Shown here: piece after piece, positions 1,223 through 20,869 of the stretch | How the letters are laid out: each line of letters starts with the position of its first letter | Position numbering within the stretch: position 1 is the first letter of the stretch | Assembly (NCBI RefSeq): GCF_945870625.1 | Contig: NZ_CAMBTS010000011.1 | Coordinates: 1-54,237, forward strand | Source of the DNA: Novosphingobium sp. Chol11 | GTDB taxonomy: Bacteria > Pseudomonadota > Alphaproteobacteria > Sphingomonadales > Sphingomonadaceae | Direction: 5' to 3' | DNA: 54,237 bases | Translations under genes and position numbers: made by a program | The notes under the pieces: model-generated | What the model was told of the DNA's origin: nothing | The model's database searches: none | What the model saw: the letters and a program-made list of their open reading frames with translations, nothing else

Positions 1223-2833
1223 TCACAAACCATGGCAAGTCCCGCGTCTAGGCACCTGATAGCGGCTTGCGCTCCAACCCGGGTGTTCCCGCTTCGTGTG
1301 GGCTAACACCGCCCATTGCCTCAGGAAGCGCCCAGCTTCCCCCATGCCAGTTCGGCGAACTCGCACAGCAACGCGCGGGTCGATGATGTCTTCCACCGCA
1401 TAACGTTCGGCGGTGCGGAAGGGGGAGCGAACCTTGTTCAGCCGGTCACGGATCATGGCGAGATGCGCGGCCGGGTCTGCGGCCTGTTCCAGTTCGGACT
1501 TGTAAGCCACTTCGATCCCGCCCTCGATCGGCAGGCTGCCCCAGTCGCCCGAGGGCCAGGCGAAGCGGTACTGAAATTCGTCGGCATTGCTCATCGCGCT
1601 GCCGGCGATGCCGTAGGCGCGCCGCACGATGATCGAGGCGAGCGGGACTGTCGCGCGGTAGATCGCATTCATGGCTTGAACGCCATAGCGGATCGTGCCG
1701 CTGGTCTCGGCGGCAAGGCCGATCATGAAGCCCGGATTGTCCACTAGGTGCACGATCGGCAGCCGGAACTGATCAGCGAGTTTGACGAAGCGCTCCACTT
1801 TTTCCGAAGTGCGCGCTTCCCACGATCCACCGAGGAAAGAGGGGTCGCTGGCGAGCAGGGCCACTGGCCAGCCGTCGAACCGGGCAAAGGCGGTGATAGC
1901 GGCGCGGCCCCACTGGCGGCCCATTTCGAATACGCTTCCCTTGTCGGCCACCGCTTCTGCGATCTTGCGCATCGAATAGACCTGTTTTGGGTCGCGGGGC
2001 ACGGCAGAGATCAGAAGATCTTCGCGCCGGTCGATCCGGTCCCCTGTTTCGGTCCGGGGGGCGCTCTGACCGACGCGGCTCGGCAGGTAGGACAAGAAGC
2101 GGCGGGCGCGCAGAAACGCCTCGGCTTCGCTGGCCACCTCCTCGTCGACCACGCCGTTGCGGGTGTGGATCGCGCTGCCGCCAAGGCTTTCCTTGTCGCT
2201 GGCTTCGCCCAGAGCCTCTACCACCGCAGGGCCAGCCGCGAAGAGTTGCGAGAGGCCCTTGACCATGATCGAATAGTGGCTCGCCACGTCTCGCGCTGCG
2301 CCCAGCCCCGCCGTCGGCCCGAGCGCCAGCGCGACCACGGGCACGCCGTCGAGGTTGCGAATCACGTCGGACCAACCCGGCACTGCGGGAACATAGGTCG
2401 CACCGATGTCCTCCAGCGTGCGCACCGAACCGCCACCGCCAGTTCCGTCAATCATGCGGATGATCGGAATGCCCAACGTATGCGCCATTTTCTCGCACTG
2501 GACGAACTTGCGGTAGATGGCAGCCTCAGCCGCCCCGCCCCGCACGGTAAAGTCATCTGCCGAGGCGACCACTGCACGGCCTTCGATATCAGCGCGGCCG
2601 AAGATGAGGTTCGAGGCGCTGAGGTCGGTGAGCTCGCCAGCGGCATCGTATTGCCCCTTGCCAGCGATCTTCCCGATCTCGCGGAACGATCCGGGATCGA
2701 CCAACCCGGCGATCCGCGCCCGCGCATCGAGCTTGCCGCGCCCATGCTGGCGCGCGACCTTGTCGGCGCCGCCCATCTTTTCGGCCAGGCCTTCGCGGCG
2801 TCGCAGCTCATCGATTTCGGCTTGCCAGGTCAT
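1223..2833 (-). CDS. Acyl-CoA carboxylase, carboxyltransferase (beta) subunit
   Basis: A 536-residue protein of the propionyl-/methylcrotonyl-CoA carboxylase beta family. These proteins transfer CO2 from carboxybiotin to an acyl-CoA, in complex with a biotin-carrying alpha subunit in the cytoplasm. The two crotonase-like halves are visible: IDGTGGGGSVRTLEDIGATY and GPTAGLGAARD in the first, LVDNPGFMIG and RRAYGIAGSAM in the second. These glycine-rich loops form the oxyanion holes of the family. Length is normal. No biotin carboxylase or biotin-carrier gene lies nearby, so the partner must be elsewhere. Its place next to a TonB receptor and a molybdenum hydroxylase suggests a catabolic acyl-CoA substrate rather than acetyl-CoA; this is inference. 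Substrate is not predictable from sequence alone. Confidence 0.88.
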   Translation of the reverse strand: MTWQAEIDELRRREGLAEKMGGADKVARQHGRGKLDARARIAGLVDPGSFREIGKIAGKGQYDAAGELTDLSASNLIFGRADIEGRAVVASADDFTVRGGAAEAAIYRKFVQCEKMAHTLGIPIIRMIDGTGGGGSVRTLEDIGATYVPAVPGWSDVIRNLDGVPVVALALGPTAGLGAARDVASHYSIMVKGLSQLFAAGPAVVEALGEASDKESLGGSAIHTRNGVVDEEVASEAEAFLRARRFLSYLPSRVGQSAPRTETGDRIDRREDLLISAVPRDPKQVYSMRKIAEAVADKGSVFEMGRQWGRAAITAFARFDGWPVALLASDPSFLGGSWEARTSEKVERFVKLADQFRLPIVHLVDNPGFMIGLAAETSGTIRYGVQAMNAIYRATVPLASIIVRRAYGIAGSAMSNADEFQYRFAWPSGDWGSLPIEGGIEVAYKSELEQAADPAAHLAMIRDRLNKVRSPFRTAERYAVEDIIDPRVAVRVRRTGMGEAGRFLRQWAVLAHTKREHPGWSASRYQVPRRGTCHGL

Positions 2834-3361
2834 CGATCACGCTCTCCCGCTCAGCGATGTGGCACGTCCAATTGCAGATGTCGCTGCAAACAATCTTGCT
2901 AGGGCAACTTGGCCGTTCTCGCCAGCGTTCCGGTCGTTGGCAGATCAGTGTGGCTTCATCAAACCTTGCAGTCCGTTCACCGTCTGAGGCGACGGCTTCT
3001 GGGCCGTTAGCAGACTCGCAGGTTCTGGTCGGCCGAGTGGAGATAGCTGCCATTCGCCGGCACGGCTTGTACAAGGCTGGTCCCGCCAACATTTCGGACA
3101 TTCGCTCATCTGGATCGCGCCGTCGAAATTTGCCCTCGGTTCATCGATTAAATGTAGCGCTATTCCTATCGCCGCAACCGTCATCTTCTGGCTCAATCAA
3201 TGAGTCCTGAGCCTAGAACGCCCTGCTTAGGGCACGATATTGTGGCGTGAGGCCTTTAACGAGCAAAGCGCGGCAAATCGGGTTGAGCATCACAGCCCCC
3301 TCGCCCTCGTATGATCGCCCCGTTAGGCAGGGCGAGATGTCCCAGAGCGAGGGGACCGCAA
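2834..3361. other. Intergenic region between carboxyltransferase and TonB receptor genes
   Basis: No convincing gene was found in these 528 bases; the open frames present have no family resemblance. An inverted repeat (CTCGCCCT at 3300-3307, AGGGCGAG at 3329-3336, 21-base loop) lies just past the receptor stop on the minus strand and could help end transcription, although no T-run follows. The promoter of the carboxyltransferase gene presumably lies here. An ATTTCGA heptamer (minus strand, 3123-3129) recurs in two other intergenic regions of the cluster. Confidence 0.4.
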
Positions 3362-5731
3362 TCAGAACTTCGCGCCGACCGAAACAGTGACTGTCGCAGG
3401 TGCGGCCCATCCCTGGAAGAACACGGTGGGCAGAGATTGGGTGCGGTAGTCCTTGTTGGTCAGGTTCTTGCCCGCCACGCGGAGGAAGTAGCCTTTGTAG
3501 TTCAGCGCGGCCGAGGCATCGAGTAGGCCGTAGCTGGGCTGGATATCGTTCAGCGTTCCGAACGTGCCGAGCGAGAAGCTGTCGATCCACGAGTAGCCGG
3601 CGGTGAGCGAGAGTTTGGCGTCGTCGGAGAGTTCGCGGATATAGCTGCCGCGCACGGTGAAGTTATTGCGGGGCACGCGCTGGAGCACGACGCCGGTGAA
3701 GTTTGCCGAGCTGCCGGGCGCGCCGGCCTGTGCGGCGGGGCCGATAGAGGCGGTCTGGCCGTTGGTCCTGCCGTCCTTCACGTTGGCGTCCTGGAGACCA
3801 TATGTTCCTGAGAGCTTGAAGCCCTCGAGCGACGGGGTCATCTTCCCGAAATCGAGATCGAGTTCGAACTCGAGCCCCTTGATCTGAACCTTGGGGAAGC
3901 TGTTGACGTACGTGTTGGTGCCGGGACCGTAACCAGGCGTGACGACGACCTGCGCCTGCTGGAAGTTCGTGATGTCGTTGATGAAGCCGGCCGCGTTGAA
4001 GGTGACCGCGCGGTTGAAGAAGCGGGTCTTAAAGCCGGCTTCATAGGTTGTATTGGTTTCGGGCAGGAACGAGAGGAAGTTGTTGTTCGGGCAGCCGCCG
4101 GTCACGCCGCAGTTGTTCTGGGTCGCGGATTGTTCGGAAAGCGTGCCGCGTATGGAGAAACCGCCCGAGCGGAAGCCCTCTGCGCGGCTCGCGTAAAGCA
4201 GCACGTCGGGGGTAGCCTGCCACTGGATATTGAAGCGGGTGATCAGCCTCTGCCAGCTGCGGCGATCGTTGATCCGCGGGACAAGTGGGATCGTGCCGAG
4301 CAGGATGTACTCGGTGTTGAAGCGCTTGGCCTCGAAGATGTTGCGCAAACCGCCCGAAAGCGTGATCGTGTCGGTGGGTTTCCAATCGAGGTTGCCGAAG
4401 AACGACCAGCTATAAGCCTTCTCGACCGAGAACTGGTCAATCGCACTGTTGGTGTTCTGGTGCAGGGTGATCTTGTGATCATAGTAGAAGGCGCCGACGA
4501 TGTAGTTGAGCTGATCACCGAGCGCTTTGCCCTGAAGGCGGACTTCCTGGGTGAACTGCTTGTAGGTCTGGTCGCGGTTGGTCAGGAGTTGGCTGCCGGT
4601 TGCCGCCAGCAGCGGGTTGCCGACACTGGTGCAGCCTGGCGCGCCTCTGCAGGTGCCGTCGAAGTCCTGATTCACCGTATCGCCCGAGGATATGTAAGAG
4701 GTCTGCGAGACAAGTTCGCCGATCGGGGTCTGCGCCTTGAGCAGCAGGCTGGCTGTGTTGGTGTTCAGCCGGTCCCTGTCGGCCCCGAGATTGTTGCCGA
4801 TCTCGCGCGGTTTCAGGCCGTCCGGGCTGCCGGTGACAGAGTTGTAGTTGGGCCAGACCGCCCCCGGATTGCCGCCGCTCAGGATTGAGGCGGTGAGCTT
4901 GTTGCCGAACTGCACCGGGGTGCCGCCGCCGGTCTGGTTGATGTGATCGAGGCTGAGATCGGCGTTCAGCCAGTCGGTCAGGTTGTAATTGACCTTGAGA
5001 TTGAACGCGCGGTATTCGCTGCCGCCGGCGCGGCGATTGGTGAACACGTTTCTGAGGAAGCCATCGATGCGGCGATACTGGCCCGAGAACGCGATCCCGC
5101 CGTCAGGGCCCAGCGGTGCATTGAGCACGCCGCGGCCATAGAATTCGTTGAACGAGCCGTAGCCTACCTCAAGCGAGGCCCCCAGCTTGCGCGTCGGCGC
5201 GCAGCGGGTGAGGTTGATGAGGCCTGCGGTGGTGTTCTTGCCATAGAAGATGCCCTGCGGCCCGCGATCGACCTCTACCGAGCAGATGTTGAACATGTCG
5301 AGCAGCTGACCGGTGTTGTTGCCGAAGAACACGCCGTCCTGGATCACGCCGACCGGCGGACTTTGGGTCTTTTCCACATCGGCATAGCCCTGGCCACGGA
5401 TGTAGATCGCGCTCTGCCCCGGCGCGGCGGTGCCGCTGCCGATGAACACGTTGGGTGCCGAGCCTTGAATATCGAGCAGCGAACGCGGGGCAAGCAATGC
5501 AAGATCTTCAGAGGTGAGCGCGGTCAGCGAGACGCCGACCTTCTGCTGGTCTGCCGCCTGCCGCGTGGCGGTGACGATGATGTCGTCCTTGCCTGCGGAT
5601 TCAGGAGCAGAAGCAGCCTCGGCACCAACCTCCGCCTCTGCCGCCTGCGCGGGAATGGCAAGAGCGATAGCAATCGCCGCGAGCGAGCATCGCACCAGAA
5701 CGCGCGAACCCAAAACGTTTACATACCGCAT
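3362..5731 (-). CDS. TonB-dependent outer membrane receptor
   Basis: A 789-residue outer-membrane transporter of the sphingomonad TonB-dependent receptor class. It takes up a substrate using energy from TonB-ExbBD. An N-terminal signal peptide (about residues 1-31, ending PAQAAEA) is followed by a TonB-box-like segment DDIIVTATRQ near residue 50. The plug domain contains YIRGQGYADV and VDRGPQGIFYGKNTTAGLIN. A 22-strand barrel follows and ends in the terminal Phe (SVGAKF) recognised by the BAM machinery. It is transcribed away from the molybdenum hydroxylase operon across a 594-bp gap. It is probably the uptake route for the compound that the neighbouring enzymes degrade (inference). Sphingomonads have many such receptors for aromatics, terpenoids and glycans; the ligand here is unknown. 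Confidence 0.93.
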   Translation of the reverse strand: MRYVNVLGSRVLVRCSLAAIAIALAIPAQAAEAEVGAEAASAPESAGKDDIIVTATRQAADQQKVGVSLTALTSEDLALLAPRSLLDIQGSAPNVFIGSGTAAPGQSAIYIRGQGYADVEKTQSPPVGVIQDGVFFGNNTGQLLDMFNICSVEVDRGPQGIFYGKNTTAGLINLTRCAPTRKLGASLEVGYGSFNEFYGRGVLNAPLGPDGGIAFSGQYRRIDGFLRNVFTNRRAGGSEYRAFNLKVNYNLTDWLNADLSLDHINQTGGGTPVQFGNKLTASILSGGNPGAVWPNYNSVTGSPDGLKPREIGNNLGADRDRLNTNTASLLLKAQTPIGELVSQTSYISSGDTVNQDFDGTCRGAPGCTSVGNPLLAATGSQLLTNRDQTYKQFTQEVRLQGKALGDQLNYIVGAFYYDHKITLHQNTNSAIDQFSVEKAYSWSFFGNLDWKPTDTITLSGGLRNIFEAKRFNTEYILLGTIPLVPRINDRRSWQRLITRFNIQWQATPDVLLYASRAEGFRSGGFSIRGTLSEQSATQNNCGVTGGCPNNNFLSFLPETNTTYEAGFKTRFFNRAVTFNAAGFINDITNFQQAQVVVTPGYGPGTNTYVNSFPKVQIKGLEFELDLDFGKMTPSLEGFKLSGTYGLQDANVKDGRTNGQTASIGPAAQAGAPGSSANFTGVVLQRVPRNNFTVRGSYIRELSDDAKLSLTAGYSWIDSFSLGTFGTLNDIQPSYGLLDASAALNYKGYFLRVAGKNLTNKDYRTQSLPTVFFQGWAAPATVTVSVGAKF

Positions 5732-6325
5732 GGCATTATCCCCTCATCCAATGGACGACCGGGCTCCGCAGCTTTTGCGCGGTAAATTACCCCCGGCCTG
5801 TCCGGCGAAGGATGTCGTCTGCGAAAGCTGGTACAACAGGCAAAAATGAGAGTGCGTCGGTGAATGTCTGAAGCATTGCACAAAACCGAGACGATTGACC
5901 GACGGCGTCCAGCGTCAGTTTTTCCCGATTGGAAGCCACTCAATGAGACCGCCGACTTCAAGGCCTTGAACCTGTCAGCCAAGGATCACGTCGGACAGCA
6001 GCGGCAGGTTTGCCAAGGCAGTAGGAAGGAGCGGTTCATCTTACGTTTGGCACTATCAACGCGCGCACGATCTTTGGCGTAGAGTTTGAGATCAAGTTCT
6101 GAGCGATGGGGGCTGCAAGTGAGCGCTTTTTCAATCTCTTGACGACGAAGCGCTCGCTCGCATACCTTGCGCAGCGCGGCGACGATCGATGCTGGAGACG
6201 CCTTCCTCTGGCATGCCGGAGGAAGGCGTGGCAATATACAGATAACGTGGTTGGGTCAGGTGCTTTGCTTGCCTCTGCCGCGGCGGCAGTGCCGGATACA
6301 AACACCGAAGCAGGCGGGGATGGGG
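5732..6325. other. Divergent intergenic region, receptor / molybdenum hydroxylase
   Basis: No gene was found in these 594 bases. The region must carry the two divergent promoters. It contains a 32-bp near-perfect palindrome at 6198-6229 (listed separately) and a small hairpin (CTGCCG-CGG-CGGCAG) at 6275-6289 in the probable leader of the hydroxylase operon. Frames reading through here into the ferredoxin gene lack family similarity upstream of codon 6326. Confidence 0.45.
6198..6229. promoter_or_regulatory. 32-bp near-perfect palindrome, candidate operator or leader hairpin
   Basis: The left arm ACGCCTTCCT and right arm AGGAAGGCGT are exact inverted repeats. The 12 bases between (CTGGCATGCCGG) continue the symmetry with a single T/G mismatch pair, so the whole element lacks a natural loop. 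Such loop-free symmetry suits a dimeric regulator site better than a terminator, and no T-run follows. It lies about 97 bases before the hydroxylase small-subunit start. The MarR protein at 10.6-11.2 kb is one possible partner, but nothing in the sequence proves it. Confidence 0.4.
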
Positions 6326-6795
<470 letters not shown>

Positions 6796-6799
<4 letters not shown>

Positions 6800-9162
6800 A
6801 CGAAACGGTTTCGAACGGGAAATTCGGCCAGTCGGTAAAGCGGGTCGAGGATGCACGCCTGATCACCGGGCGGGGCCGATTCGTCGATGATCTGGTGTTC
6901 CTAGGCCAGACATATGCCGCGTTTGTGCGTTCACCTTACGCCCATGCGGCGATTGCCGGGATCGACCTTGCGTCTGCGCAGGATATGCCCGGTGTGATCC
7001 GCATTTTCACCGGACGTGAACTGGCCGATGCCGGATTGCCGCCACTGCCATCGGGCTGGAACCTGAGCTCGACTGATGGCACGCCCGCCCGGGTCGGGCT
7101 GCATCATGCGCTGGCGGTGGATGCGATCCGGTTCGTGGGTGAACCCGTTGCACTGGTTATTGCCGAAACGCGCGATCAGGCGCGCGATGCGGCAGATGCG
7201 GTGCTGGTCGAGTATCAGGAATTGCCGACCGTCGTCGATCTCGCGGCGGCGATTGCCGATGGCGCGCCGCAATTGCATGACGGCATTGCGCAGAACCGCG
7301 CTTTTGAATGGGAGATCGGCAGCAGCGCCGAAGTTGAAGCCGCGTTTGCTGCCGCCACCCGGCGCGTCACGCTGAACCTGCGCAACAACCGGCTTATTCC
7401 CAATGCGATCGAGCCGCGCGCTATCAACGTGCAATGGTCTGCCTTTGATCAGGCGATGACCATTCATTTGACGCACCAGAACCCGATCGGCATGCGCGGG
7501 TTTTTCGCGTTCATGCTGGGGCTGCCTTCGGAAAACAATCTGCGCGTTGTCTCGCCCGATGTCGGCGGCGGTTTCGGATCGAAAGCGCCAGCATACGCCG
7601 AGGAATTTGCGGTGGCTTTTGCCGCCAAGATGCTCGACCGTCCGGTGAAGTGGACCGCCGAGCGCAGCGAATCTTTTCTTACCGATGCGCATGGCCGCGA
7701 TCACCTGACCACCGCGGAACTGGCAATGGACGACGATGGCCGTTTTCTTGGTCTGAGGGTTCACACGTTAGCCAACCTTGGCGCCTACATCTCCACCTCG
7801 AACGCGCTGGTGGTCTCTTACATGTATGCCACGATGCTCTCGGGTCAGTATGCCATTCCTGCGATCCATGCCCGGGTCGAGGGCGTCTATACCAACACCT
7901 GCCCCGTCGACGCCTATCGAGGCGCTGGGCGCCCCGAAGCCGCCTATCTAATCGAACGGCTCGCCAATCTTGCTGCGCGCGAGATCGGGGTCGATCAGGC
8001 GGAGATACGGCGTCGCAATTTCATCCGGCAGTTCCCGTACCAGACACCGCTCATCTATTGCTACGACAGTGGCGATTACGAGGGATGTCTCGATGCGGCG
8101 CTGGGGCTTGCGGATTATGCCGGATTCGGGGCGCGCAAGGCTGAATCACAGGCCCGAGGCAAGCTGCGCGGGATTGGCTTGTCCGCCTATGTCGAGGCAT
8201 GCGGGATCGGCCCATCAAAGCTGCTCGCCAGCCTTGGCGGGGGAGGAGCCATGTGGGAATCGTGCGAAATTCGGGTGCAACCGGGCGGTTCGATCGAGGT
8301 TCTCACCGGCGCGCACAACCACGGGCAGGGCCATCAGACAGTCTATGCCCAGATCGTTTCAGAGCGGTTCGGGGTTCCGATGAACAGCATCAACGTGGTC
8401 CAGGGCGATACTGACCGTATACAGGCGGGCACGGGGACATACGGGTCGCGCGCGTCCGTCGGGCTGTCGGCAGCGGTTCACTCCTGCGACAAGATCGTCG
8501 CCAAGGGCCGAGCCATCGTCGCGCACATGCTCGAAGTCGATCTCGCGGACGTGGTTTTCGCAGACGGCATATATTCGAGCGCTGCCAGCAACCGGACGGT
8601 GGCTTTTGTGGAGATGGCGCAGGCGGCGCACGGTGCCGCGAGCTTTCCCACCGACCAGATCGAGCCGGGTCTTGTCGCGACCAGCTTTTTCGATCCGCCC
8701 AACTTCACCTACCCGGCCGGGGTCCATGTCTGCGAGGTCGAGATCGATCCTGAAACCGGGGTTGTCGAAGTCGTCGCATTCAACGCGGCTGATGACTTCG
8801 GCAATGTCGCGAACCCGCTCATCGTCGAAGGCCAGGTCCATGGCGGCGTGACCCAGGGGATCGCGCAGGCTTTATGGGAAAACGCGCTCTATGATCCGGA
8901 CAACGCTCAGCTGATGACGGCGTCGTACATGGACTACGGCATGCCGCGAGCGGACAGTTTGCCGGAGTTCGGCCTGTGCTTCTGGCCATCGCCGACACCG
9001 GTCAACCCGCTTGGCATGAAAGGCTGCGGCGAAGCGGGCGCGATCGGCGCGCCGCCTGCGGTGATCAACGCAGTGTGTGATGCGCTGGGGATGGACCACA
9101 TCGACATGCCTGCATCGTCTGAGAAGATCTGGCAGCTGTGCCGCGCGCGGGAGAATTCCTGA
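6796..9162 (+). CDS. Molybdenum hydroxylase large subunit (CoxL-like, form II)
   Basis: A 788-residue molybdopterin-cytosine-dinucleotide-binding catalytic subunit of the xanthine dehydrogenase / CO dehydrogenase family. The N-terminus FGQSVKRVEDARLITGRGRF is the usual opening. The cofactor-binding GGGFGSK is near residue 258, and the active-site loop AYRGAGR is near residue 373. The Mo-proximal GCGEAGAIG is near residue 743 and includes the catalytic Glu. True CO dehydrogenase (form I) has AYXCSFR in the active loop, so this is a form II enzyme and probably hydroxylates an organic substrate such as an aldehyde, N-heterocycle or aromatic ring. It is translationally coupled at both ends: ATGA with the small subunit, TGATG with the FAD subunit. 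No MCD-synthesis or XdhC-type maturation gene is in the window. Confidence 0.93.
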
Positions 9163-9956: not shown

Positions 9957-9975
9957 ATCAGGGAATTGTACCTTA

Positions 9976-12377: not shown

Positions 12378-12688
12378 CCAGCTTGTCCAGCAGTCGTTAG
12401 CATCACCGTACCAAGTCCTTCTAAAGCAAGTTCATACCCGCAGCCCAGGCGCATCGGCAGCGGGCGGCAAATGGCTGATCTCGATCAGGAACCCGCCTTC
12501 AAGGGGCGGGGCGATCAGCCTTTCCAGCGCGATTTGTGACCTGGCTTCGCGGATGCAGTCGCTGGTACATGCATGGCGGGCTGTTTCTCTCGTGGCCCTA
12601 TTTATTGTATTGATTTCGAAACTTCACAAAGCGGGAGCGTCATGTCAAGTGTTCGGCAGGATTGCAAGTTAGGCAGGGGGGCAGGCCA
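12378..12688. other. Divergent intergenic region, MFS / epoxide-hydrolase-like genes
   Basis: No complete gene is present. The minus strand from about 12612 down to the stop at 12432-12434 is an open frame with no start codon. It encodes a protein-like peptide containing EARSQIALERLIAPPLEGGF and ending LPPAADAPGLRV. This may be the C-terminal scrap of a lost gene, although its family is not recognised. A palindrome TTTCGAAA (12614-12621) within ATTGATTTCGAAACTTCAC is a candidate regulatory site. The promoter of the + arm should lie here. Confidence 0.35.
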
Positions 12689-13069: not shown

Positions 13070-13096
13070 CGCAAACTGATGAAATGGGGGGCGGGC

Positions 13097-13858
13097 ATGA
13101 AACTGGGGCTTGAGGGAAAGATCGTTCTGGTCAGCGCTGGCAGCCAGGGCATTGGCCTCGCTGCGGCGCGGGGGTTCCATGCCGAAGGCGCGCAGGTCGC
13201 GATCTGCGGGCGGAACCAATCCCGCCTCGATGCGGCCAGCGCGCTCTTGCCGGGCGCTCTGGCCATCGCGGCCGACGTGACCAATGCCGATGATATCGCG
13301 CGGGTCTGCAGCGACGTGGCGGCCCGGCTCGGACCCGTCGACATTCTGGTGAACAATGCCGGAGGCCCGCCGCCCGGGCTGTTTCAGGATCTGGCGGATC
13401 AAGACTGGCAGGATGCGGTCAATCTGACCTTGATGTCGGTCGTACGGATGACCCGCGCGGTGCTGCCTGCGATGCGGGCGCAGCGCTGGGGGAGGATCGT
13501 CAATGTCTCGTCGTTCGGCGTCAAGCAGCCCGTCCCGCGCCTCACGCTCTCCAACAGCGTGCGCATGGCGGTGCTTGGCTGGGCCAAGACGCTTTCGGAG
13601 CAGGTCGCGGCCGACAATGTACTGGTCAATACGGTTTGCCCGGGATGGACCGAGACTGGCCGGATCGCCGGTCTGCTTGGCCCCCGCGATGAACCCAACC
13701 CGGCCCGCGATGCCATTCTGGCCGATATTCCGCTTGGCCGTTTTGCCAAAGCGGATGAAATCGCCAACATGATCGTGTTTCTGGGGTCCGCGGCAGCCAG
13801 CTATGTCACGGGGACCGCAATTGCCGTCGATGGCGGTGCAAGCAGAGGGTATGCCTGA
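13097..13858 (+). CDS. SDR-fold protein lacking the catalytic Tyr and Lys
   Basis: A 253-residue Rossmann-fold protein of the short-chain dehydrogenase superfamily, closest in look to the FabG-like subgroup with atypical active sites. The cofactor loop is SAGSQGIG rather than TGxxxGIG, and VNNAGG is normal. Ser138 is kept (NVSSF), but the expected YxxxK reads SNSVR, so Tyr is Ser152 and Lys is Arg156. The C-terminus YVTGTAIAVDGGASRG is typical. Such proteins occur near aromatic and steroid catabolic genes, and their reaction is not settled. An alternative start at 13079 adds six residues; 13097 has a strong purine-rich GGGGGGCGGG just upstream. The stop is separated by one base from the next start. 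Confidence 0.85.
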   Translation: MKLGLEGKIVLVSAGSQGIGLAAARGFHAEGAQVAICGRNQSRLDAASALLPGALAIAADVTNADDIARVCSDVAARLGPVDILVNNAGGPPPGLFQDLADQDWQDAVNLTLMSVVRMTRAVLPAMRAQRWGRIVNVSSFGVKQPVPRLTLSNSVRMAVLGWAKTLSEQVAADNVLVNTVCPGWTETGRIAGLLGPRDEPNPARDAILADIPLGRFAKADEIANMIVFLGSAAASYVTGTAIAVDGGASRGYA

Positions 13859-13859
13859 C

Positions 13860-14867
13860 ATGAGCGTGGCCAACAGTGGTCTTCAAGGCGCACGCGTCAT
13901 CGATATTCACGCCCATGCGGTGCTGGAGGAAACCTTCGGCGGGGCCGGGGCTTTCGGGCCGGAACTTTACGCGGAGGCCGACGGGGTGCCGGTGTTTCGC
14001 ATCGGGGACTACCGCCTGCGCGGGGTGCGATATCGCGGCAGTCCGTTCATGGAACCGGCGCTGCGCATCGCCGCAATGGACCGGATCGGCATCGACTGGC
14101 AGTTGCTCTCGCCCAACCCGCTCACCTATTTCCACTACATTCCCGCCGACGAGGCGATCCGTTTCTGCCGCGTCCACAACGATGCGCTGGCGGCTGTCGT
14201 GGCGCAGTTTCCGGACCGGCTCGGTGCCGCCGCTGCGCTGCCGATGCAGGATGTGGGAGCCGCCATCGCGGAACTGCGCCGCACGGTGCGCGAACTTGGG
14301 TTTCGCGCCGCCTATATCGGCGCGGACATGCCCCACGGGCTCTCCGATGCAGTGATGGACCCGTTTTACGACGCCGTGAGTGCGTTGGATGTGCCCTTGT
14401 TCATCCATCCGGCCTCGGCTGGGATCGACGGCCCGCCTGGCCCTGCCTCGCTCGGCCTGTTCGAGCTTGATATCACGGTCGGCTTCGCGATGCAGGAAAC
14501 GGTTGCGCTCGCCACGTTGCTGTTTGGCGGAGTGCTGCACCGCCATCCCGCGCTCGATATTTGCATCAGCCATGGCGGCGGCGCGATCAGCCTGCTGTGG
14601 GGACGGCTGCGCCATGCCGCGCACAAACGCACTTGGGTCCCGGAGCATCTGCGGCCCGAGGGCCGGTTCGAGGAGACCTTGCAGCGCATCTGGTACGACA
14701 TCCACATGCACGACAGTCAGTCGCTTGACTTGCTGATCGCGCGGGTCGGGCAGGAACGGCTGGTCTATGGCACCAACTTTGCCGGTTGGGATGCGCCGCA
14801 GAGCCTCGATACCCACGGCATGGAGCCTTTGCTGGCTGACAATGCGCGGCGGCTGCTGCGCGGCTAA
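13860..14867 (+). CDS. Amidohydrolase-2 family protein (ACMSD / resorcylate-decarboxylase-like)
   Basis: A 335-residue TIM-barrel metal-dependent hydrolase or decarboxylase of the family that includes aminocarboxymuconate semialdehyde decarboxylase. Metal ligands His17 and His19 (DIHAH), His183 (LFIHPAS) and His238 (ISHGGG) are present. The final family Asp, normally in GTD, is Asn306 here (VYGTNFAGWD), with Asp311 five residues later as a possible substitute. In characterised relatives this group decarboxylates or hydrolyses cyclic acids. The start at 13860 lies one base past the SDR stop, with AGAGGG about 11 bases upstream; an alternative ATG at 13851 sits directly on that motif. Its 3' end overlaps that of the convergent SDR gene by 4 bases. 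Confidence 0.85.
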   Translation: MSVANSGLQGARVIDIHAHAVLEETFGGAGAFGPELYAEADGVPVFRIGDYRLRGVRYRGSPFMEPALRIAAMDRIGIDWQLLSPNPLTYFHYIPADEAIRFCRVHNDALAAVVAQFPDRLGAAAALPMQDVGAAIAELRRTVRELGFRAAYIGADMPHGLSDAVMDPFYDAVSALDVPLFIHPASAGIDGPPGPASLGLFELDITVGFAMQETVALATLLFGGVLHRHPALDICISHGGGAISLLWGRLRHAAHKRTWVPEHLRPEGRFEETLQRIWYDIHMHDSQSLDLLIARVGQERLVYGTNFAGWDAPQSLDTHGMEPLLADNARRLLRG

Positions 14868-15619
14868 CTCCGCGTCAGGCCAAGGCCGAGGCCGCCGTCG
14901 ACATCCAGAATCGCGCCGGTAACCCAGGGCGCGGTGATGAGGTATTCGGCGGCTTGGGCTACATCGATGCCTTGGCCAATGTGATTGATCGCTTGCAATG
15001 GCAGCATGGCGGTCAGGCGTTCGCGTGCTTCGGCCTCGGTCAAGAGGCCCGCGCGCACGTTGATTTCGGTGAGGACGCCGCCGGGGACAATGCAGTTTAC
15101 GCGGATCGACCGATCGCCGAGTTCGGCGGCGAGCACTTGCGTCAAAGTCTGCGCCGCCGCCTTGGTGGCAGCATAGGGTGATGCGCCGGGAAAGGCCCGC
15201 CGCGTGTGGCTCGATCCGAAGAACAGGATCGATCCGCGGGTCTGCGCCAGATGCGGCACGGCAAGGCCAGACAGCATCATTGCACCGACGACATTCGAAT
15301 GGAAAATTCCAAGCAGCTGGGCTTCGTCCAGTTCGGTCAGCGGACCCCGATACATATTGCCGGCATTGTTAATCAGCACGTCGAGTTTGCCGCCGTTGGC
15401 CAGTGCGGCCGCGATCATGGCAGCGCGGTCAGCCGCCACGGTCACGTTGCCTGTCACGGCCGCGCACCCGATGTCAGCGGCCACCGCGCGGACCTTGTCG
15501 GTGCGCCTGCCGCTGATCGTGACACGGGCACCTTGCGCCACGAAATGCCGCGCCATCGCTTCGCCAAGTCCGGAACCACCGCCGGTGATGAGAATGCTTT
15601 TGCCTGCAATGTCAGTCAT
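14864..15619 (-). CDS. Short-chain dehydrogenase/reductase
   Basis: A 251-residue classical SDR. It has the NAD(P) loop TGGGSGLG at the N-terminus, NNAG in strand 4, Ser in FFGSSHTRR and the catalytic YAATK. It presumably oxidises or reduces an alcohol/ketone intermediate of the pathway. The start at 15619 (MTDIAGKS) has GGAGA upstream and overlaps the stop of the ThuA-like gene (ATGA). It is the last gene of the minus-strand P450 operon. The substrate is unknown, and three SDRs in one cluster suggest successive redox steps. Confidence 0.9.
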   Translation of the reverse strand: MTDIAGKSILITGGGSGLGEAMARHFVAQGARVTISGRRTDKVRAVAADIGCAAVTGNVTVAADRAAMIAAALANGGKLDVLINNAGNMYRGPLTELDEAQLLGIFHSNVVGAMMLSGLAVPHLAQTRGSILFFGSSHTRRAFPGASPYAATKAAAQTLTQVLAAELGDRSIRVNCIVPGGVLTEINVRAGLLTEAEARERLTAMLPLQAINHIGQGIDVAQAAEYLITAPWVTGAILDVDGGLGLGLTRS

Positions 15620-16305
15620 GTCGGATCTCCGCGCAGCCATTCGAGCAATCCTGCTAGGATCGCAGCATGCGCCGGATGCTGCAGCGAAGCCCCGTCATGC
15701 CCCAGCGTGTCGACCGCGACTTTTCCAGTGCCGCACATCCTGCGCCAGACCACCGGGACCGCGCCATGTCCGGCATCGGCAGCGGCCAGAACCTCGCAGT
15801 CGCTGGCAAGGTCAAGGTTGTGATAGACCTCGTCTGCCAGCGTGAAGCGGCGTTCGCCTGCGCTGATCGCGGCTCCGGCGAATGTCAGTTCGGCGCTCAC
15901 ATTGCCAAGAGGCGGATGGAAGGAGTGGTCCCAGTTCCAGCCACCGCCGAGCAGATCGATCCAGCCGGGCTGGTTGTCCCAGCAAATTACGGCGGTATGC
16001 ATCGCGAGCAAGCTGCCGCCGCCTGCAACATGGTTTGCGATCCGCGCCATGTCCGCATCATCCAGCAAGGCGCCCCATTCTGCGCGATCTGCGGCGTGGC
16101 GTTCGGCCTGGGTCATCGACCAGCGCAGTGCGTTGACGGCAAGGATACTGCGACGACCGGAGACTAGCGTCAGCGCTTCAGAAATGCTCGAGGTGAGCGT
16201 GGTCCGCAGCCCCATGCCTTGCGCAATGCTTGCCAGCGCTGCCGACGATTCGGCAAACGGATGCCGGTAACCATCGCTGTAGATGACCAGATGGGGTTCA
16301 TTCAT
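15616..16305 (-). CDS. ThuA-like domain protein
   Basis: A 229-residue protein of the ThuA (trehalose-utilisation) class-I glutamine amidotransferase-like fold. Visible family landmarks are LVIYSDGYRHPF at the N-terminus, GGGSLLAMHTAVICWDNQPG in the middle, DEVYHNLDL, and VPVVWRRMCGTGKVAVDTLG near the end. The biochemical role of ThuA proteins is poorly defined; some take part in sugar or steroid-like ketone metabolism. It lies between two SDR genes with overlaps on both sides (8 bases upstream, 4 downstream), so it belongs to the P450 operon. No classical nucleophile Cys of glutamine amidotransferases is seen at the expected elbow. Confidence 0.8.
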   Translation of the reverse strand: MNEPHLVIYSDGYRHPFAESSAALASIAQGMGLRTTLTSSISEALTLVSGRRSILAVNALRWSMTQAERHAADRAEWGALLDDADMARIANHVAGGGSLLAMHTAVICWDNQPGWIDLLGGGWNWDHSFHPPLGNVSAELTFAGAAISAGERRFTLADEVYHNLDLASDCEVLAAADAGHGAVPVVWRRMCGTGKVAVDTLGHDGASLQHPAHAAILAGLLEWLRGDPT

Positions 16306-17044
16306 TGCCGCGTGGCAGGTTCTTGAGCACGGCGTGAGTCACGCCGCCATCGACCACCAGATCATGCCCGGTGATATAGCTGCCCGCCGCGCTGTCGAGG
16401 AAGCAGATGGCATTGGCGATGTCCTCGGGCGTGCCGAGGCGGCCAAGCGGCACCCCGGCGGTGCGGCTGGCCCGCACTTTGGGGTCGGCATAGATCGGTG
16501 CGGACATGCCGCCATCGACGAAGCCGGGAGCCACACTATTGAAGCGCAGCCCGTGGCCACCATACTCCAGCGCGAATTGCTTCATCAATTGCAGCACGGC
16601 GCTTTTGGTTGCGGGATAGGCTCCGGCACCGGGTCCGGGGCTATAGGCATTGATCGAAGTGAGCGAGACGACATGGCCCGACCCGCGCGGGATCATGCGC
16701 CGCACCGCCTCACGCGTGACCGCAAACACCCCGATCAGATTGATATCTACAACCTGGCGGAACGCCTCGACTGACAGCTCGCCGAGTTGGCCGAAACGCA
16801 CGATCCCCGCATTGTTGACGACAAGGTCGGGCACGTCGCCGAAGGCATCGAACAAGTCGCTGACCGCAGCGGCATCGGACACGTCGGCGAGATGGCCAGT
16901 CAGGTGCTCATGGGAAGCAGCCAGCGCGGCAACGCTGTTGGCATTCACATCTGCAATGGCAACGCGGTATCCCGCAGCGAGCAGGGCTTTTGCAATTGCA
17001 GCGCCGATTCCTGCGCCGCCACCCGTCACAAGCGCAAGCTTCAT
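16298..17044 (-). CDS. Short-chain dehydrogenase/reductase
   Basis: A 248-residue classical SDR with TGGGAGIG near residue 7, VVNNAG, Ser in SLTSINAYS and the catalytic YPATK. The C-terminal YITGHDLVVDGGVTH is the standard tail. The start ATG overlaps the stop of the upstream P450 (17041-17044), and its 3' end overlaps the ThuA-like gene by 8 bases. In this operon it probably acts on a product of the P450s, such as an alcohol (inference). Confidence 0.9.
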   Translation of the reverse strand: MKLALVTGGGAGIGAAIAKALLAAGYRVAIADVNANSVAALAASHEHLTGHLADVSDAAAVSDLFDAFGDVPDLVVNNAGIVRFGQLGELSVEAFRQVVDINLIGVFAVTREAVRRMIPRGSGHVVSLTSINAYSPGPGAGAYPATKSAVLQLMKQFALEYGGHGLRFNSVAPGFVDGGMSAPIYADPKVRASRTAGVPLGRLGTPEDIANAICFLDSAAGSYITGHDLVVDGGVTHAVLKNLPRGNE

Positions 17045-18252
17045 GAATGGCGATCCTTTGTGAACTGTAACGGGAAGGAGCCCCAGTTGGGGCGTTTTGT
17101 GCTTGCATCGGCCACCGGCGGATCGCTGGCGATCGTTCGCGCACCGCAGCGCAGAAGCTCACCCACCACCAGCGCGACAATGCCGAGTTGGGCCTCGTTG
17201 GGGTCGGAGCCGGGCTTGGCCACGATCCCGCCGTCCAGCTCGCGGCCCAGGCAGGTGTGCAGCCCGATGCCGAAGGCGAGGCCCGAACGCAACACATTGC
17301 CAGGGATGACGCGGTCGGGATTGAACTGGTCCGCATCCGAGCCAAAGACCGCCACATCGCGGTTCGCCCGGAACAAGTCGAGCTCGATCCGGTCGCCTGC
17401 CTCCAGTTCACCCGCGCCCGCCACATGCATTGGGCAAGTCGTGCTGCGCCAGGCCTCGTGGCTGGCGGGATGCAGCCGCAGCGATTCATGCGCACAATGC
17501 TGCACGAAGATCGCGTTATCGAGGCGGGCCCAGCGCGCCGCATCATAGCCTGCCCAGTGCAGGATCTCGTGGAGCGCATGGACAATCGCATTGGCGGTCG
17601 AATGCGCGCCTGCCTGCATGTAGAACGCGATCTCGCGCAAGATCTGGTGTTCTTCCAGTTCCAGCGCATCATTGCCCATGAGCAGCGTCGTTAGCACATC
17701 GCGCGGCAACTCTGCTTCGGAGAGTTCACCTGCCGCGCAGGCCGCGATCAGCGCGCGGCGCCGGGCCAGCGAGGGTTGGAAAAAGTCCCTGTCGAAATCC
17801 GCCATCACCGCTGAAACCTCGCGGTTGATGTCGGCATGGTTGCGGGTCGAATGGACCATTGTGGCCCCTTCGCTGAGCTTCTTCGTGATGGCGATGAGGC
17901 GCTCGGTTTCCTCAGCTGTTCGCAGCCGCCGGTCGATCCCGGCAAAATCCGAGGTCAGGTTTACCGTCAGTCGGTAGCCGAGCTGGATCAGATCACCGCC
18001 CCCAGCGGCGCGGTAAGGCGCCATGGTTTCCCCCAGCGTTTTGGGGAAAACCTCTTTCTCATAGTAGTGGAAGAAGTTGCGACGAAACACCCTGACCTCG
18101 ACCGTGCGCCGCCGCCCATGCTCCTCGCCATGAAGTGTCAGAAGCACCCCGTCCATGACGACTTTGCCCGCATCATAAAGCGCTTGCTTGAGATCGCGGT
18201 TGCGGAGGGCCGTTTCGCAATCGCTGAACGAGGTGATGCGGTGAATGCTCAT
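17041..18252 (-). CDS. Cytochrome P450 (second of a tandem pair)
   Basis: A 403-residue soluble bacterial P450 monooxygenase. The heme loop FGIGLHTCLGRE carries Cys334 as iron ligand, and the K-helix ExxR is Glu256-Arg259 (ESLR). The I-helix motif reads AGAHST (214-219): the acidic residue that normally precedes Thr and helps deliver protons to bound oxygen is His217. It is a clear paralogue of the next gene, sharing LYDA, EEHGRRR/AEHRARR, VFR(R/K)N, NLT.DF.GIDR and other blocks, so the pair arose by tandem duplication. Start overlaps the previous stop by one base (TGATG). No ferredoxin or ferredoxin reductase gene is adjacent, so electrons must come from elsewhere. Confidence 0.92.
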   Translation of the reverse strand: MSIHRITSFSDCETALRNRDLKQALYDAGKVVMDGVLLTLHGEEHGRRRTVEVRVFRRNFFHYYEKEVFPKTLGETMAPYRAAGGGDLIQLGYRLTVNLTSDFAGIDRRLRTAEETERLIAITKKLSEGATMVHSTRNHADINREVSAVMADFDRDFFQPSLARRRALIAACAAGELSEAELPRDVLTTLLMGNDALELEEHQILREIAFYMQAGAHSTANAIVHALHEILHWAGYDAARWARLDNAIFVQHCAHESLRLHPASHEAWRSTTCPMHVAGAGELEAGDRIELDLFRANRDVAVFGSDADQFNPDRVIPGNVLRSGLAFGIGLHTCLGRELDGGIVAKPGSDPNEAQLGIVALVVGELLRCGARTIASDPPVADASTKRPNWGSFPLQFTKDRHS

Positions 18253-19472
18253 CAGATGATCGCTCGCTCCCGGTCGAAGCGGACGGGATACCGTGCCCAG
18301 GAAACGCGGGTGATGCCTTGGTCGAGCGCGGCCTTGTCATCGGGATCGGCGTGGATTCCGGCCTCCAGCAGGGCCTTTACGATCAGCGGCACCGTGCCGA
18401 ACTGGTGATCGGCAGGCACGGTATCCGCACGGGGTTCGACCCCGATCGCCAGATTGCGCCCGAGGCAGGCATGCGCGCCAAGCCCCATCGAGATGCCGTG
18501 GGCAAAGGCCTGCCCGGCAAAGGTCCGATGGGGGTCGAAGTGCTCTGGATCGGGTCCGAACACGGCTTCCTCTCGATTGGCCTGGCGCAGATCGATAACG
18601 ACGGTGTCGCCTTCGTTGGCTGCGCTGCCATCGCCAAGTGTGATCGGGCAAAGCGCCCGCCGTTTAGCGACAGGGCTGGAAGGGTGCAGACGCACACTTT
18701 CGAAAACGCAGTGCTGGATAAAGAACGGGTCCGAAGCGAGGCGCGCGATGTCTTCGGGATGGGCGTTTACCCATTCCAGGATTTCATGGATTGCGTGGGT
18801 CAGCGAATGGATGGTGGTGTGCGCACCTGCCATCGTGAAGAAGATGCCCTCCTGCAGGAACTCCTGCTCGGTCATGCCGAGCTTGTCCTCGTCTATGACC
18901 AGCGCCATGAGCACATCTCGCGGCAAGGCATCGGCAGACATTTTCCCTGCATCACACGCAGCATTTAGTGCCCGGCGGCGCTTCAGCGAGGGGGTGAGGA
19001 AACGCTCCCGGAACTGTTCCATGGCGCGCTCGATCCGGGCGCGCTTTTCGGGCACATCTTCTGGACGCGACTGGCCGAGCGCGGGGGCAAGGCTGAACTC
19101 CTTGAGCAGCCGCAGCAGTTCGGCGGTCTCCTCGGCCGAACGCTCGGTCCTGTCGATCCCGGTGAAATCGACGGTGAGGTTCATCATCATACGGTAGCCG
19201 ATGTCGACCAGATCGCCTTTGCCAGCGGCCAGAAAAGGACCCAGCGTTTCGGCCAGCGTCTGCGGCATGATGTTCTTTTCGTAATCGACGAAGACGTTTT
19301 TGCGGAACACCGTTGCTTCGACATTGCGTCGTGCACGGTGTTCTGCCCCATGCAGATTGACGAGGCAGCGCTCCATCATCAGCGATGCGGCGTCATAAAG
19401 CGATTGGCGCAGCTCGCTCTGTCGCAGGGTTTTGGCGCAGCCTTCGAAGCTGGTGATCGTATGCTCGGTCAT
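18252..19472 (-). CDS. Cytochrome P450 (first of a tandem pair)
   Basis: A 406-residue P450. The heme loop is MGLGAHACLGRN with Cys336; Met329 replaces the usual Phe at the start of this motif. ExxR is Glu258-Arg261 (ESVR). The I-helix is AGAHTT (215-220), again with His218 instead of Asp/Glu. The chosen start is ATG 19472 (MTEHTITSFEGC), which aligns with the start of its paralogue and overlaps the amidohydrolase stop by 4 bases; an upstream extension of 61 codons is only the antisense of the preceding gene. Both P450s may act in sequence on one substrate or as isoforms with different specificity. The substrate is unknown. Confidence 0.92.
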   Translation of the reverse strand: MTEHTITSFEGCAKTLRQSELRQSLYDAASLMMERCLVNLHGAEHRARRNVEATVFRKNVFVDYEKNIMPQTLAETLGPFLAAGKGDLVDIGYRMMMNLTVDFTGIDRTERSAEETAELLRLLKEFSLAPALGQSRPEDVPEKRARIERAMEQFRERFLTPSLKRRRALNAACDAGKMSADALPRDVLMALVIDEDKLGMTEQEFLQEGIFFTMAGAHTTIHSLTHAIHEILEWVNAHPEDIARLASDPFFIQHCVFESVRLHPSSPVAKRRALCPITLGDGSAANEGDTVVIDLRQANREEAVFGPDPEHFDPHRTFAGQAFAHGISMGLGAHACLGRNLAIGVEPRADTVPADHQFGTVPLIVKALLEAGIHADPDDKAALDQGITRVSWARYPVRFDRERAII

Positions 19473-20815
19473 TCGCCAGCCTTCCAATGACCGGTGGCAA
19501 GCCGCGTAGCAGCGACCCTCGAATAGTTCGAAACGCGCCACGATGGGGGATCGCGCCGTTCGGGCAGCGGCGTCGCAAGATCGGTCGCCTTGCCCGCCTG
19601 AAACACGTGGGCAATGCCGCCCTTCTCGCCCAGCAGTGTCACGTCTTGCGTGCAATCGCCCGCTACCACGATGATATCCGCGTCCTTGCCGACCTCAAGC
19701 GTGCCGATGCGATCGGCAAGGCCAAGCGCACGCGCGCCCTCGAACGTGGCGCAGCGCAGCGCCTGCAGCGGCGTGAGCCCGAGGTTCTCGACCAGGATCT
19801 GCAGTTCGCGCCAGTGCCATTCGCCATAGGGCGTGATCGAAAATCCACTTTCGGTCCCGCATGCCAGCGGCACTCCGGCGTCATAGGCGATGCGCAGCTG
19901 GCGGCTGCTTTGTTCAATTTCCTTCGCAAACAGATCCTGCAAATAGGCGCTGGCCCCAATCATCTTTCCATGATCGGCCAGGACCGCCTGGAAAGTAAGC
20001 GTCGGAACAATCGGCACTTTTGCGGCGATCACCGCCTCCAGCGCCGCGTCGTCCATATAGGTTGCGTGGAGGATCATGTCGAACCCGGCGCGCGCGGCGT
20101 CGCGCGTGCTGGTGGCGTTGCGGCAATGCCCGACTATAGGCAGCCCGAGATCGTGAGCGGTTGCGGCGGCTAGAACGAGTTCCTCGAACGACCAGACCTG
20201 GATCTCGCCCTCGCTTCGCTGGCGCGGGATCAGGCCCGTGACATGGATCTTGATCCAGTCCGCCCCGCGTTTGGCCTGGCGGCGGATTTCGGCAACGATA
20301 TCATCTTTGCTCGGCGTTACCTTGAGATAACCGATGCCGCCTTCATCGGGCACCAGCAGTCCGGCCGTCCCGCCGACCGAGGTGAACAGCGCGTTGCCGC
20401 CACATCGCATGCGCGGTCCCGGCGTGACGCCACATTCGATCGCGTCGCGCAGGTCCAGCGAAACATCGAAGATGGTGTCGGCATCGAACATCGTGGTCAC
20501 GCCCGCGCGCAGCACCTTGCGGACGTTGTAGGCGGCGATGATTGCGGCAAGCCCCTCCCGCCGGTGGAAAAACAGCTCGTCGTTGCTGAACGGTTCGTCA
20601 AAGCTGATGTGGCAGTGCGCATCGACCAGCCCAGGCATGACCGTCATGCCCCGCGCGTCAATTCGCGTTACCTTGCGGTCGGCGCAGTAGGCCAAGGCCT
20701 CTTCTCCGCGCGCTAGAATCCTGTCCGAAAAAGCAATGGCTTCGAGCTGTGGCGGGCTGCCACTGCCGTCATACAGAATGCCGCTTTCGATCAGGGTGAT
20801 GATTGCCGCGTCCAA
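19469..20815 (-). CDS. Imidazolonepropionase-like amidohydrolase
   Basis: A 448-residue cytoplasmic metal-dependent amidohydrolase of the imidazolonepropionase / Xaa-Pro dipeptidase-like type. Visible ligands are His67 and His69 (VDAHCH), Lys189 (WIKIHVTG, probably carboxylated), His230 (VGHCRN) and His250 (LHATYM). The last metal Asp, usually in GTD, is Glu322 (CGTESG). The C-terminal LGLADRIGTLEVGKDADIIV is standard. The start is a TTG at 20815 with a good GGAGAGG six bases upstream, and no ATG exists before the conserved core. It is the first gene of the six-gene minus-strand operon. It may hydrolyse a ring amide, lactone or similar bond of the substrate or product (inference). Confidence 0.87.
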   Translation of the reverse strand: MDAAIITLIESGILYDGSGSPPQLEAIAFSDRILARGEEALAYCADRKVTRIDARGMTVMPGLVDAHCHISFDEPFSNDELFFHRREGLAAIIAAYNVRKVLRAGVTTMFDADTIFDVSLDLRDAIECGVTPGPRMRCGGNALFTSVGGTAGLLVPDEGGIGYLKVTPSKDDIVAEIRRQAKRGADWIKIHVTGLIPRQRSEGEIQVWSFEELVLAAATAHDLGLPIVGHCRNATSTRDAARAGFDMILHATYMDDAALEAVIAAKVPIVPTLTFQAVLADHGKMIGASAYLQDLFAKEIEQSSRQLRIAYDAGVPLACGTESGFSITPYGEWHWRELQILVENLGLTPLQALRCATFEGARALGLADRIGTLEVGKDADIIVVAGDCTQDVTLLGEKGGIAHVFQAGKATDLATPLPERRDPPSWRVSNYSRVAATRLATGHWKAGE

Positions 20816-20842
20816 AGTGCCTCTCCGTTCTCTGCCAGAATT

Positions 20843-20869
20843 TTTATATTTATTTCGATAGAATCACAA
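20843..20869 (-). promoter_or_regulatory. Candidate promoter of the amidohydrolase-P450 operon
   Basis: On the minus strand TTGTGA (20869-20864) and TATAAA (20848-20843) are separated by 15 bases, or 16-17 if the -10 box is shifted within the A/T run. The stretch is unusually AT-rich for this genome and lies 28-54 bases before the TTG start. An ATTTCGA heptamer (20852-20858) sits between the boxes and also occurs in the two other intergenic regions of the cluster. The spacing is short, so the assignment is tentative. Confidence 0.35.

What the first reader, a model, noticed from the sequence alone, without database searches (positions are those of the whole stretch)
1223..20869. Candidate undescribed catabolic cluster: acyl-CoA carboxyltransferase, TonB receptor, Mo hydroxylase, two P450s, epoxide hydrolase, amidohydrolases, SDRs
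Sixteen genes over about 19.6 kb form a coherent uptake, hydroxylation, ring-opening and CoA-linked set. The minus arm of six genes overlaps at every junction. I do not recognise a known pathway with this combination (form II CoxSLM-CoxG, tandem P450s, ThuA-like, LEH-like protein, two amidohydrolase classes). The substrate is probably hydrophobic or cyclic. Function is inferred from families and context only.
Basis: partly seen in the sequence, partly recalled or inferred. Interest (0 to 1): 0.6.

Follow-up and report, generated by a model that had tools for sequence, protein, structure and literature searches.

The report
Widespread undescribed catabolic gene cluster
A block of about fifteen enzyme genes, including two unusual P450s and a molybdenum hydroxylase, recurs as a unit in scattered bacteria and in nearly every sequenced member of one small-genome family, so it probably breaks down some common natural compound that has not yet been identified.

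Summary
The genes are there: Pfam confirms every family named, and all five junctions of the six-gene minus arm overlap. In 30 loci compared, AH1, P450b, P450a and SDR3 are present in 30 of 30, and ThuA and SDR2 in the 27 long enough to show them. Carriers: 10 of 298 genomes of the window's family, own included, in 8 of 96 genera; a plasmid typed conjugative; two MAGs titled Gammaproteobacteria; and 15 of 18 genomes (6 of 6 at least 90% complete) of an unnamed streamlined alphaproteobacterial family, f49. The carboxyltransferase does not belong; the TonB receptor is not conserved as one orthologue. The Mo enzyme is form II, without the CO-dehydrogenase motif. P450a shares at most 20% identity with the 50 solved chains listed and has His for the I-helix acid (30 of 30). 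AH1 and AH2 have conserved changes at the expected catalytic Asp. Best reading: a mobile oxidative catabolic module for a hydrophobic cyclic natural product. Substrate unproven. No listed paper in ten searches described it.

The parts
1223..2833 (-). Acyl-CoA carboxyltransferase: claimed as first gene, but NOT part of the conserved unit
   Evidence: Pfam; in the stretch read of 1 of 30 loci, the window itself; orthologues in same-genus genomes without P450a, and on another contig in sibling MAG G1038
3169..3216 (.). 48-bp stretch 94% identical to the end of an IS5-family transposase gene and its flank: possible insertion scar
3362..5731 (-). TonB-dependent receptor; neighbour, membership doubtful
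   Evidence: Pfam; only distant receptors at other loci
6167..6799 (+). CoxS-like [2Fe-2S] subunit (true start perhaps near 6320)
6796..9162 (+). CoxL-like Mo subunit, form II (AYRGAGR; KGCGEAG)
9138..9956 (+). CoxM-like FAD subunit
9976..10563 (+). CoxG-like protein
10583..11266 (-). MarR-type regulator (true start probably downstream of 11266)
11115..12377 (-). MFS transporter
12662..13069 (+). Limonene-1,2-epoxide-hydrolase-like protein
13079..13858 (+). SDR1
13803..14867 (+). AH2, ACMSD-like amidohydrolase-2; expected catalytic Asp is Asn
14864..15640 (-). SDR2 (core)
15616..16305 (-). ThuA-like protein (core)
16298..17044 (-). SDR3 (core)
17041..18252 (-). P450a (core), I-helix AG[AS]HST
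18252..19472 (-). P450b (core), paralogue of P450a (42%); ATG at 19472
19469..20815 (-). AH1 (core), Amidohydro_1; expected catalytic Asp is Glu

Best explanation
The segment about 6.2-20.8 kb (not from 1.2 kb) is a horizontally moving catabolic module. Core: amidohydrolase AH1, the P450 pair P450b-P450a, SDR3, a ThuA-like protein, SDR2, usually with SDR1 and a form II molybdenum hydroxylase (CoxSLM, with CoxG and in some loci XdhC). Loci in the window's family usually add AH2, an LEH-type epoxide hydrolase, MFS and MarR, and in part of them a VOC protein, an MhpD-like hydratase, a PQQ-cytochrome c dehydrogenase or an OYE. Likely working order (all enzymatic steps inferred): import of a scarce hydrophobic cyclic natural product; C-H oxidation by the Mo hydroxylase and the two P450s, with epoxide opening by LEH where present; oxidation of the alcohols by the SDRs; hydrolytic ring or amide/lactone opening by AH1 (and AH2); further breakdown in central metabolism. 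Shown: presence, order, conservation, parallel divergence of five core genes, absence of the CO-dehydrogenase motif, unusual conserved active-site residues. Inferred: catabolic direction, substrate class (an alicyclic, terpenoid- or polyketide-like compound of aquatic phototrophs is my first guess), and reaction order.
For: Conserved unit: AH1, P450b, P450a, SDR3 in 30 of 30 loci; ThuA and SDR2 in 27, the other 3 being contigs that end within SDR3; CoxL in 22 and SDR1 in 22 of 30. Pairwise distances of AH1, P450a, P450b, SDR3 and ThuA correlate at 0.92-0.97 over 27 loci (not corrected for relatedness). Patchy in the window's family: 10 of 298 genomes with own, 8 of 96 genera, none of the 5 other same-genus genomes listed; on plasmid pTHN, typed conjugative; other neighbours in a 90%-identical sibling. 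Family-wide in f49: 15 of 18, 6 of 6 at least 90% complete. In the 4 f49 genomes searched there is one CoxS hit each, beside CoxG, CoxM and XdhC pieces but away from CoxL. Catabolic type: TonB receptors, MFS, MarR, hydrolases, hydratase and dehydrogenases around it. Named carriers include microcystin degraders MD-1, ERN07 and THN1 and Sphingosinicella microcystinivorans (its microcystin use is recalled).
Against: No substrate or phenotype is known. None of the genes I identified in the window block is a ferredoxin or reductase for the P450s. AH1, AH2 and P450a depart from textbook active sites, so predicted reactions may be wrong. In the f49 stretches no AH2, LEH or MFS orthologue is next to the core. 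SDR2 distances correlate only 0.60-0.70 with the others. CoxSLM was not found in the stretches of three sphingomonad loci (G174, L052, L055). One P450 relative (40%) sits between NRPS genes of Streptantibioticus cattleyicolor, so the P450 lineage is not purely catabolic.
Confidence: 0.5

Rival explanations
1. Catabolism of an N-heterocyclic or amide natural product: the Mo enzyme hydroxylates carbon next to nitrogen and AH1 opens the resulting lactam or amide.
For: CoxL is related to quinoline 2-oxidoreductase and 6-hydroxypseudooxynicotine dehydrogenase; AH1's solved relatives include amide hydrolases (dipeptidase, ochratoxinase, LlADH); AH2 is ACMSD-like.
Against: The best CoxL match in the PDB is a CO dehydrogenase, and the top NCBIfam hit is a glyceraldehyde dehydrogenase, below its cut-off; the LEH protein (17 of 30 loci) points to an epoxide.
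Confidence: 0.25
2. Part of microcystin use: breakdown of the Adda side chain after MlrA-C.
For: MD-1, ERN07 and THN1 are microcystin degraders (passages of PMC8705652, and PMC6167471); S. microcystinivorans too (recalled).
Against: The MlrC_C family (PF07171) is found in 3 of 11 carriers searched, not in the window's own genome nor on plasmid pTHN (the family is broader than MlrC, and THN1's chromosome was not searched). f49 carries the core family-wide.
Confidence: 0.05
3. A biosynthetic or tailoring cluster rather than a catabolic one.
For: Tandem P450s, SDRs and SnoaL-like folds also occur in secondary metabolism (general knowledge); the nearest outside P450 on plasmids (40%) lies between NRPS genes.
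Against: No scaffold-forming enzyme among the conserved genes identified; retained in 1.4-Mb genomes next to housekeeping genes.
Confidence: 0.1
4. Two unrelated neighbouring sets (an aldehyde-type Mo oxidoreductase and a P450 operon) that merely adjoin.
For: CoxSLMG changes side and orientation between loci, and was not found in the stretches of G174, L052 and L055.
Against: CoxL lies by the core in 22 of 30 loci, including the five f49 loci read and L062; in f49 the only CoxS found is 60-67% identical to this one.
Confidence: 0.1

Closest known systems
Form II 'CoxL' oxidoreductases (xanthine-oxidase family)
   Same: CoxSLM subunits, CoxG, XdhC nearby in some loci; AYRGAGR; GEAG with the catalytic-type Glu
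   Different: Linked to a P450/SDR/amidohydrolase unit in 22 of 30 loci
Limonene pathway (monooxygenase, limonene-1,2-epoxide hydrolase, diol dehydrogenase; recalled)
   Same: LEH with the expected catalytic residues next to an SDR and P450s
   Different: Two divergent P450s, Mo hydroxylase, ThuA and two amidohydrolases; no Baeyer-Villiger gene among the genes identified
Estradiol (edc) cluster of Novosphingobium tardaugens (listing with start of abstract seen, PMC7793797; rest recalled)
   Same: Sphingomonad catabolic cluster in divergent operons
   Different: No ring-cleavage dioxygenase among the conserved genes identified here; sequences were not compared
ACMSD and Xaa-Pro dipeptidase/ochratoxinase amidohydrolases
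   Same: Families and most metal-ligand motifs
   Different: Expected Asp replaced by Asn (AH2, 17 of 17) and Glu (AH1, 30 of 30)

Membership tests
Aerobic CO dehydrogenase (form I) | AYXCSFR active-site motif (recalled) | tested here: not met
   AYRGAGR in 21 of 21 CoxL orthologues aligned
Xanthine-oxidase-family Mo hydroxylase | Fe-S, FAD and MoCo subunits with the catalytic Glu (recalled) | tested here: met
   KGCGEAG 21 of 21
Cytochrome P450 | Cys heme ligand and ExxR (recalled) | tested here: met
   Cys and ExxR in 30 of 30 for P450a and for P450b
Typical monooxygenase P450 | I-helix acid-alcohol pair (D/E-T; recalled) | tested here: not met
   P450a: His in 30 of 30; P450b: His 24, Gln 5, Phe 1 of 30
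Limonene-1,2-epoxide hydrolase family | Y-x-N, R-x-D and the WRDYFD Asp (recalled) | tested here: met
   Y, N, R, D and WRDYFD conserved in the 15 orthologues aligned (N at the 85% level or better); aligns to solved LEHs
Limonene-1,2-epoxide hydrolase family | Epoxide hydrolase activity | not testable with these tools
   needs purified protein
ACMSD-type decarboxylase | Metal-ligand His set and catalytic Asp (recalled) | tested here: not met
   Asp is Asn (GTNF) in 17 of 17; HxH and SHGGG kept
Ochratoxinase/prolidase-like amidohydrolase | HxH, carboxylated Lys, two His, catalytic Asp (recalled) | tested here: not met
   Asp is Glu in 30 of 30 rows; other motifs kept where the row is complete
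Microcystin (mlr) pathway | mlr genes in the carriers | tested here: not met
   PF07171 in 3 of 11 carriers; a proxy family only

The most novel reading that the evidence does not exclude
An undescribed pathway for a widespread natural product: a six-gene core with a new pair of P450s, of which at least P450a uses His instead of the usual acid in oxygen activation, teamed with two amidohydrolases with altered catalytic acids. It is fixed in a streamlined bacterial family and has spread by transfer into sphingomonads, several of them from cyanobacterial blooms; its CoxL subunit is open to being mistaken for CO dehydrogenase.
Probability: 0.4. Interest if true: 0.75.

Novelty: new variant of a known kind. 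Interest (0 to 1): 0.6.

Why it matters
A gene set that 1.4-Mb genomes keep almost family-wide should handle something they meet constantly; naming that compound would expose an unrecognised carbon flow. It gives a functional context to one clade of form II CoxL, which surveys may count as CO oxidisers. The P450 pair and both hydrolases are ready test cases for unusual active sites, and named cultured carriers (S. microcystinivorans DSM 19791, Novosphingobium MD-1) make the question testable.

Tried and rejected
Carboxyltransferase as a member: rejected. One specific TonB receptor as a member: rejected for now. CO dehydrogenase: rejected by motif. Microcystin/Adda: disfavoured. One scan of viral contigs with six peptide patterns found no relative of P450a. 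Rfam at gathering thresholds and ARAGORN on the window: nothing. No sharp GC break across the cluster. The S. cattleyicolor P450 gave no substrate hint. The fold search placed P450a among ordinary P450s (14-20% identity in the 50 rows listed, TM-score of about 0.6-0.75; P450b was not folded), and ThuA beside ThuA-like proteins, GH42 enzymes and amidotransferases: no substrate hint. Naming f49: not possible; one partial 16S was found with nothing to compare it to. AEGEAN-169/HIMB59 was considered from passages of PMC10308909, which give GC of 27-32.5%, against 32-35% in my f49 stretches: undecided. Paper searches: no title or abstract start listed described the cluster (lists capped); two searches returned no paper. 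In some searches the P450b rows of L061 and L062 were wrongly taken from P450a; one search picks by position and replaces them. In one search two rows and one row were read on the wrong strand; (A3) replaced them, and A1 and A2 were not used further.

Full report
What is there. The window is a whole contig (C11, 54237 bases) of an assembly in 179 contigs, 93.8% complete. Pfam and NCBIfam agree with the gene families claimed. The minus arm AH1-P450b-P450a-SDR3-ThuA-SDR2 overlaps at all five junctions. To its right lie TatC, TatB, ScpB, ScpA and a GH3 hydrolase.

Is it a unit? P450a was searched in 298 genomes of the same family: 10, the own genome included, carry it (8 of 96 genera), each with the paralogue P450b next to it; the 5 other same-genus genomes listed have no match. 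A pattern scan of the one-genome-per-species collection gave 19 loci with titles: Novosphingobium MD-1, ERN07, AAP83, PC22D and two Novosphingobium MAGs, Sphingosinicella microcystinivorans, Rhizorhabdus histidinilytica, Sphingomonas sp. Y57, an uncultured Erythrobacter, a Parerythrobacter MAG, Sphingomonadaceae or Sphingomonadales MAGs, two MAGs titled Gammaproteobacteria and one titled Klebsiella pneumoniae. Novosphingobium sp. THN1 carries the block on a plasmid typed conjugative. Sampling the class gave 8 of 385 and the phylum 1 of 398, own genome included in both. Of the 7 other class hits, 4 lie in one family, f49, with genomes of 1.3-1.4 Mb and about 32-35% GC in the stretches read; G423 and G522 are in two other families, and G352 is a weak single hit. 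Of 18 f49 genomes 15 carry P450a, including 6 of the 6 at least 90% complete.

Anatomy across loci. I compared 30 loci from different genomes. Seven genome-contig loci (L050, L051, L053, L056-L059) duplicate G genomes and were dropped; L063 (Streptantibioticus) and G352 were left out; of the 15 f49 carriers five were read. Some of the 30 are close relatives (for example THN1, L048, L049), so they are not independent. With identity floors that I set, counts of 30 are: AH1 30, P450b 30, P450a 30, SDR3 30, ThuA 27, SDR2 27, SDR1 22, CoxL 22, MFS 20, AH2 19, LEH 17, MarR 17, CoxM 16, CoxS 15, CoxG 14, VOC 11, MhpD 10, PQQ 9, OYE 7, XdhC 3; the carboxyltransferase and the window's TonB receptor 1 each, the window itself. 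Some stretches are short, so the lower counts are minima; the three without ThuA and SDR2 (G256, G423, G522) end within SDR3. The extra conserved genes were found by comparing ORFs between loci and named by Pfam/NCBIfam; the window itself lacks VOC, MhpD, OYE, XdhC and PQQ near the cluster, though a 49%-identical PQQ enzyme lies elsewhere in its genome. Pairwise distances of AH1, P450a, P450b, SDR3 and ThuA correlate at 0.92-0.97 over 27 loci; SDR2 correlates at only 0.60-0.70.

What does not belong. The carboxyltransferase has orthologues at 76-84% in G111, G255 and G218, same-genus genomes without a P450a match. In sibling MAG G1038 a 92% orthologue lies on contig C4, while the whole 51.7-kb contig with the cluster, read in three stretches, has none. 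Carriers G292, G284, G113 and G564 have orthologues at 55-73%, but on other contigs or (G292) more than 60 kb away; the best matches of the other carriers searched are 31-37%. Between it and the receptor in the window is a 48-bp stretch matching the end of an IS5-family transposase gene. Other loci have some TonB receptor nearby, but not an orthologue of this one.

f49 in detail. In the five f49 genomes read (G564, G469, G640, G345, G1030) the order is AH1-P450b-P450a-SDR3-ThuA-SDR2, SDR1 opposite, then CoxL. In the four searched, one CoxS hit per genome (60-67% identical, E up to 1e-15) lies elsewhere, beside CoxG, CoxM and XdhC pieces. Six f49 genomes hold 16-24 TonB receptor matches and at least one LEH-family match each, but the LEH relatives are distant (32-39%) and on other contigs. 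Flanking genes include heme synthesis, a tRNA-modifying enzyme, an ExbB-like protein and a PQQ dehydrogenase of another architecture.

Active sites. CoxL: AYRGAGR and KGCGEAG in 21 of 21, so not the CO-dehydrogenase motif. P450a: Cys and ExxR kept, I-helix AG[AS]HST in 30 of 30; P450b: Cys and ExxR kept, His 24, Gln 5, Phe 1. The P450a model is confident (pLDDT 92), yet the 50 PDB chains listed share only 14-20% identity; by sequence profile the best solved match is CYP134-type CypX, E 1.5e-14. LEH keeps the expected catalytic residues in the 15 aligned. AH2 keeps HxH and SHGGG but has GTN where ACMSD has GTD. AH1 keeps the HxH, Lys and His motifs, except where one row is truncated, but has Glu for Asp in 30 of 30 rows. 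ThuA is modelled well (pLDDT 94) and resembles ThuA-like and amidotransferase-like folds, without a clue to function. The residues expected of each family are recalled, not from a call.

Mechanism. Shown: a conserved, patchily distributed, co-diverging oxidative module. Inferred: Mo-hydroxylase and P450 oxidation of a hydrophobic cyclic compound, epoxide opening by LEH where present, SDR oxidation, hydrolytic opening by AH1/AH2, import by MFS and TonB receptors, MarR control. The habitat hint is soft: MD-1, ERN07 and THN1 come from bloom lakes and some MAG titles name ponds or (recalled) lakes, but such places are favoured in the collections and I ran no control; the habitat of f49 is unknown to me. 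Microcystin itself is not the likely substrate.

Novelty. In ten searches of an open-licence library no listed title or abstract start described the cluster; that library lacks most subscription journals. Of PMC8705652, PMC6167471, PMC10308909, PMC6691742 and PMC8197338 I saw only passages. I rate it a new variant of a known kind: a catabolic cluster of known families in a combination I could not find described, conserved over an unusually wide range.

Noticed in passing
f49 genomes G564, G469, G640, G345, G1030, G1024: 1.3-1.4 Mb genomes with 16-24 TonB receptor matches each, which seems many for such small genomes.
   Followed up: partly
L043 20001-21193 and 12778-13580: P450a and CoxM on the THN1 plasmid each match in two pieces, suggesting frameshifts or assembly errors.
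   Followed up: no
L013 (G289:C1:1262489-1263679): P450a of this genome has one internal TGA.
   Followed up: no
L062 713-1882: A third P450 (38-39% to P450a) beside AH2, lacking the His motif and just under Pfam's p450 cut-off.
   Followed up: partly
L062, record CAMAXE010000021.1: The record title names Klebsiella pneumoniae, but pieces match a MAG titled Gammaproteobacteria (L061) at 93-94%; possibly a mislabelled MAG.
   Followed up: no
window 1-1064: The left contig end holds an open frame rich in short repeats, autotransporter-like by eye.
   Followed up: no
L063 14806-16182: A 40% relative of P450a lies between NRPS genes, beside a B12-radical-SAM gene, in Streptantibioticus cattleyicolor, and also has His in the I-helix motif.
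   Followed up: partly
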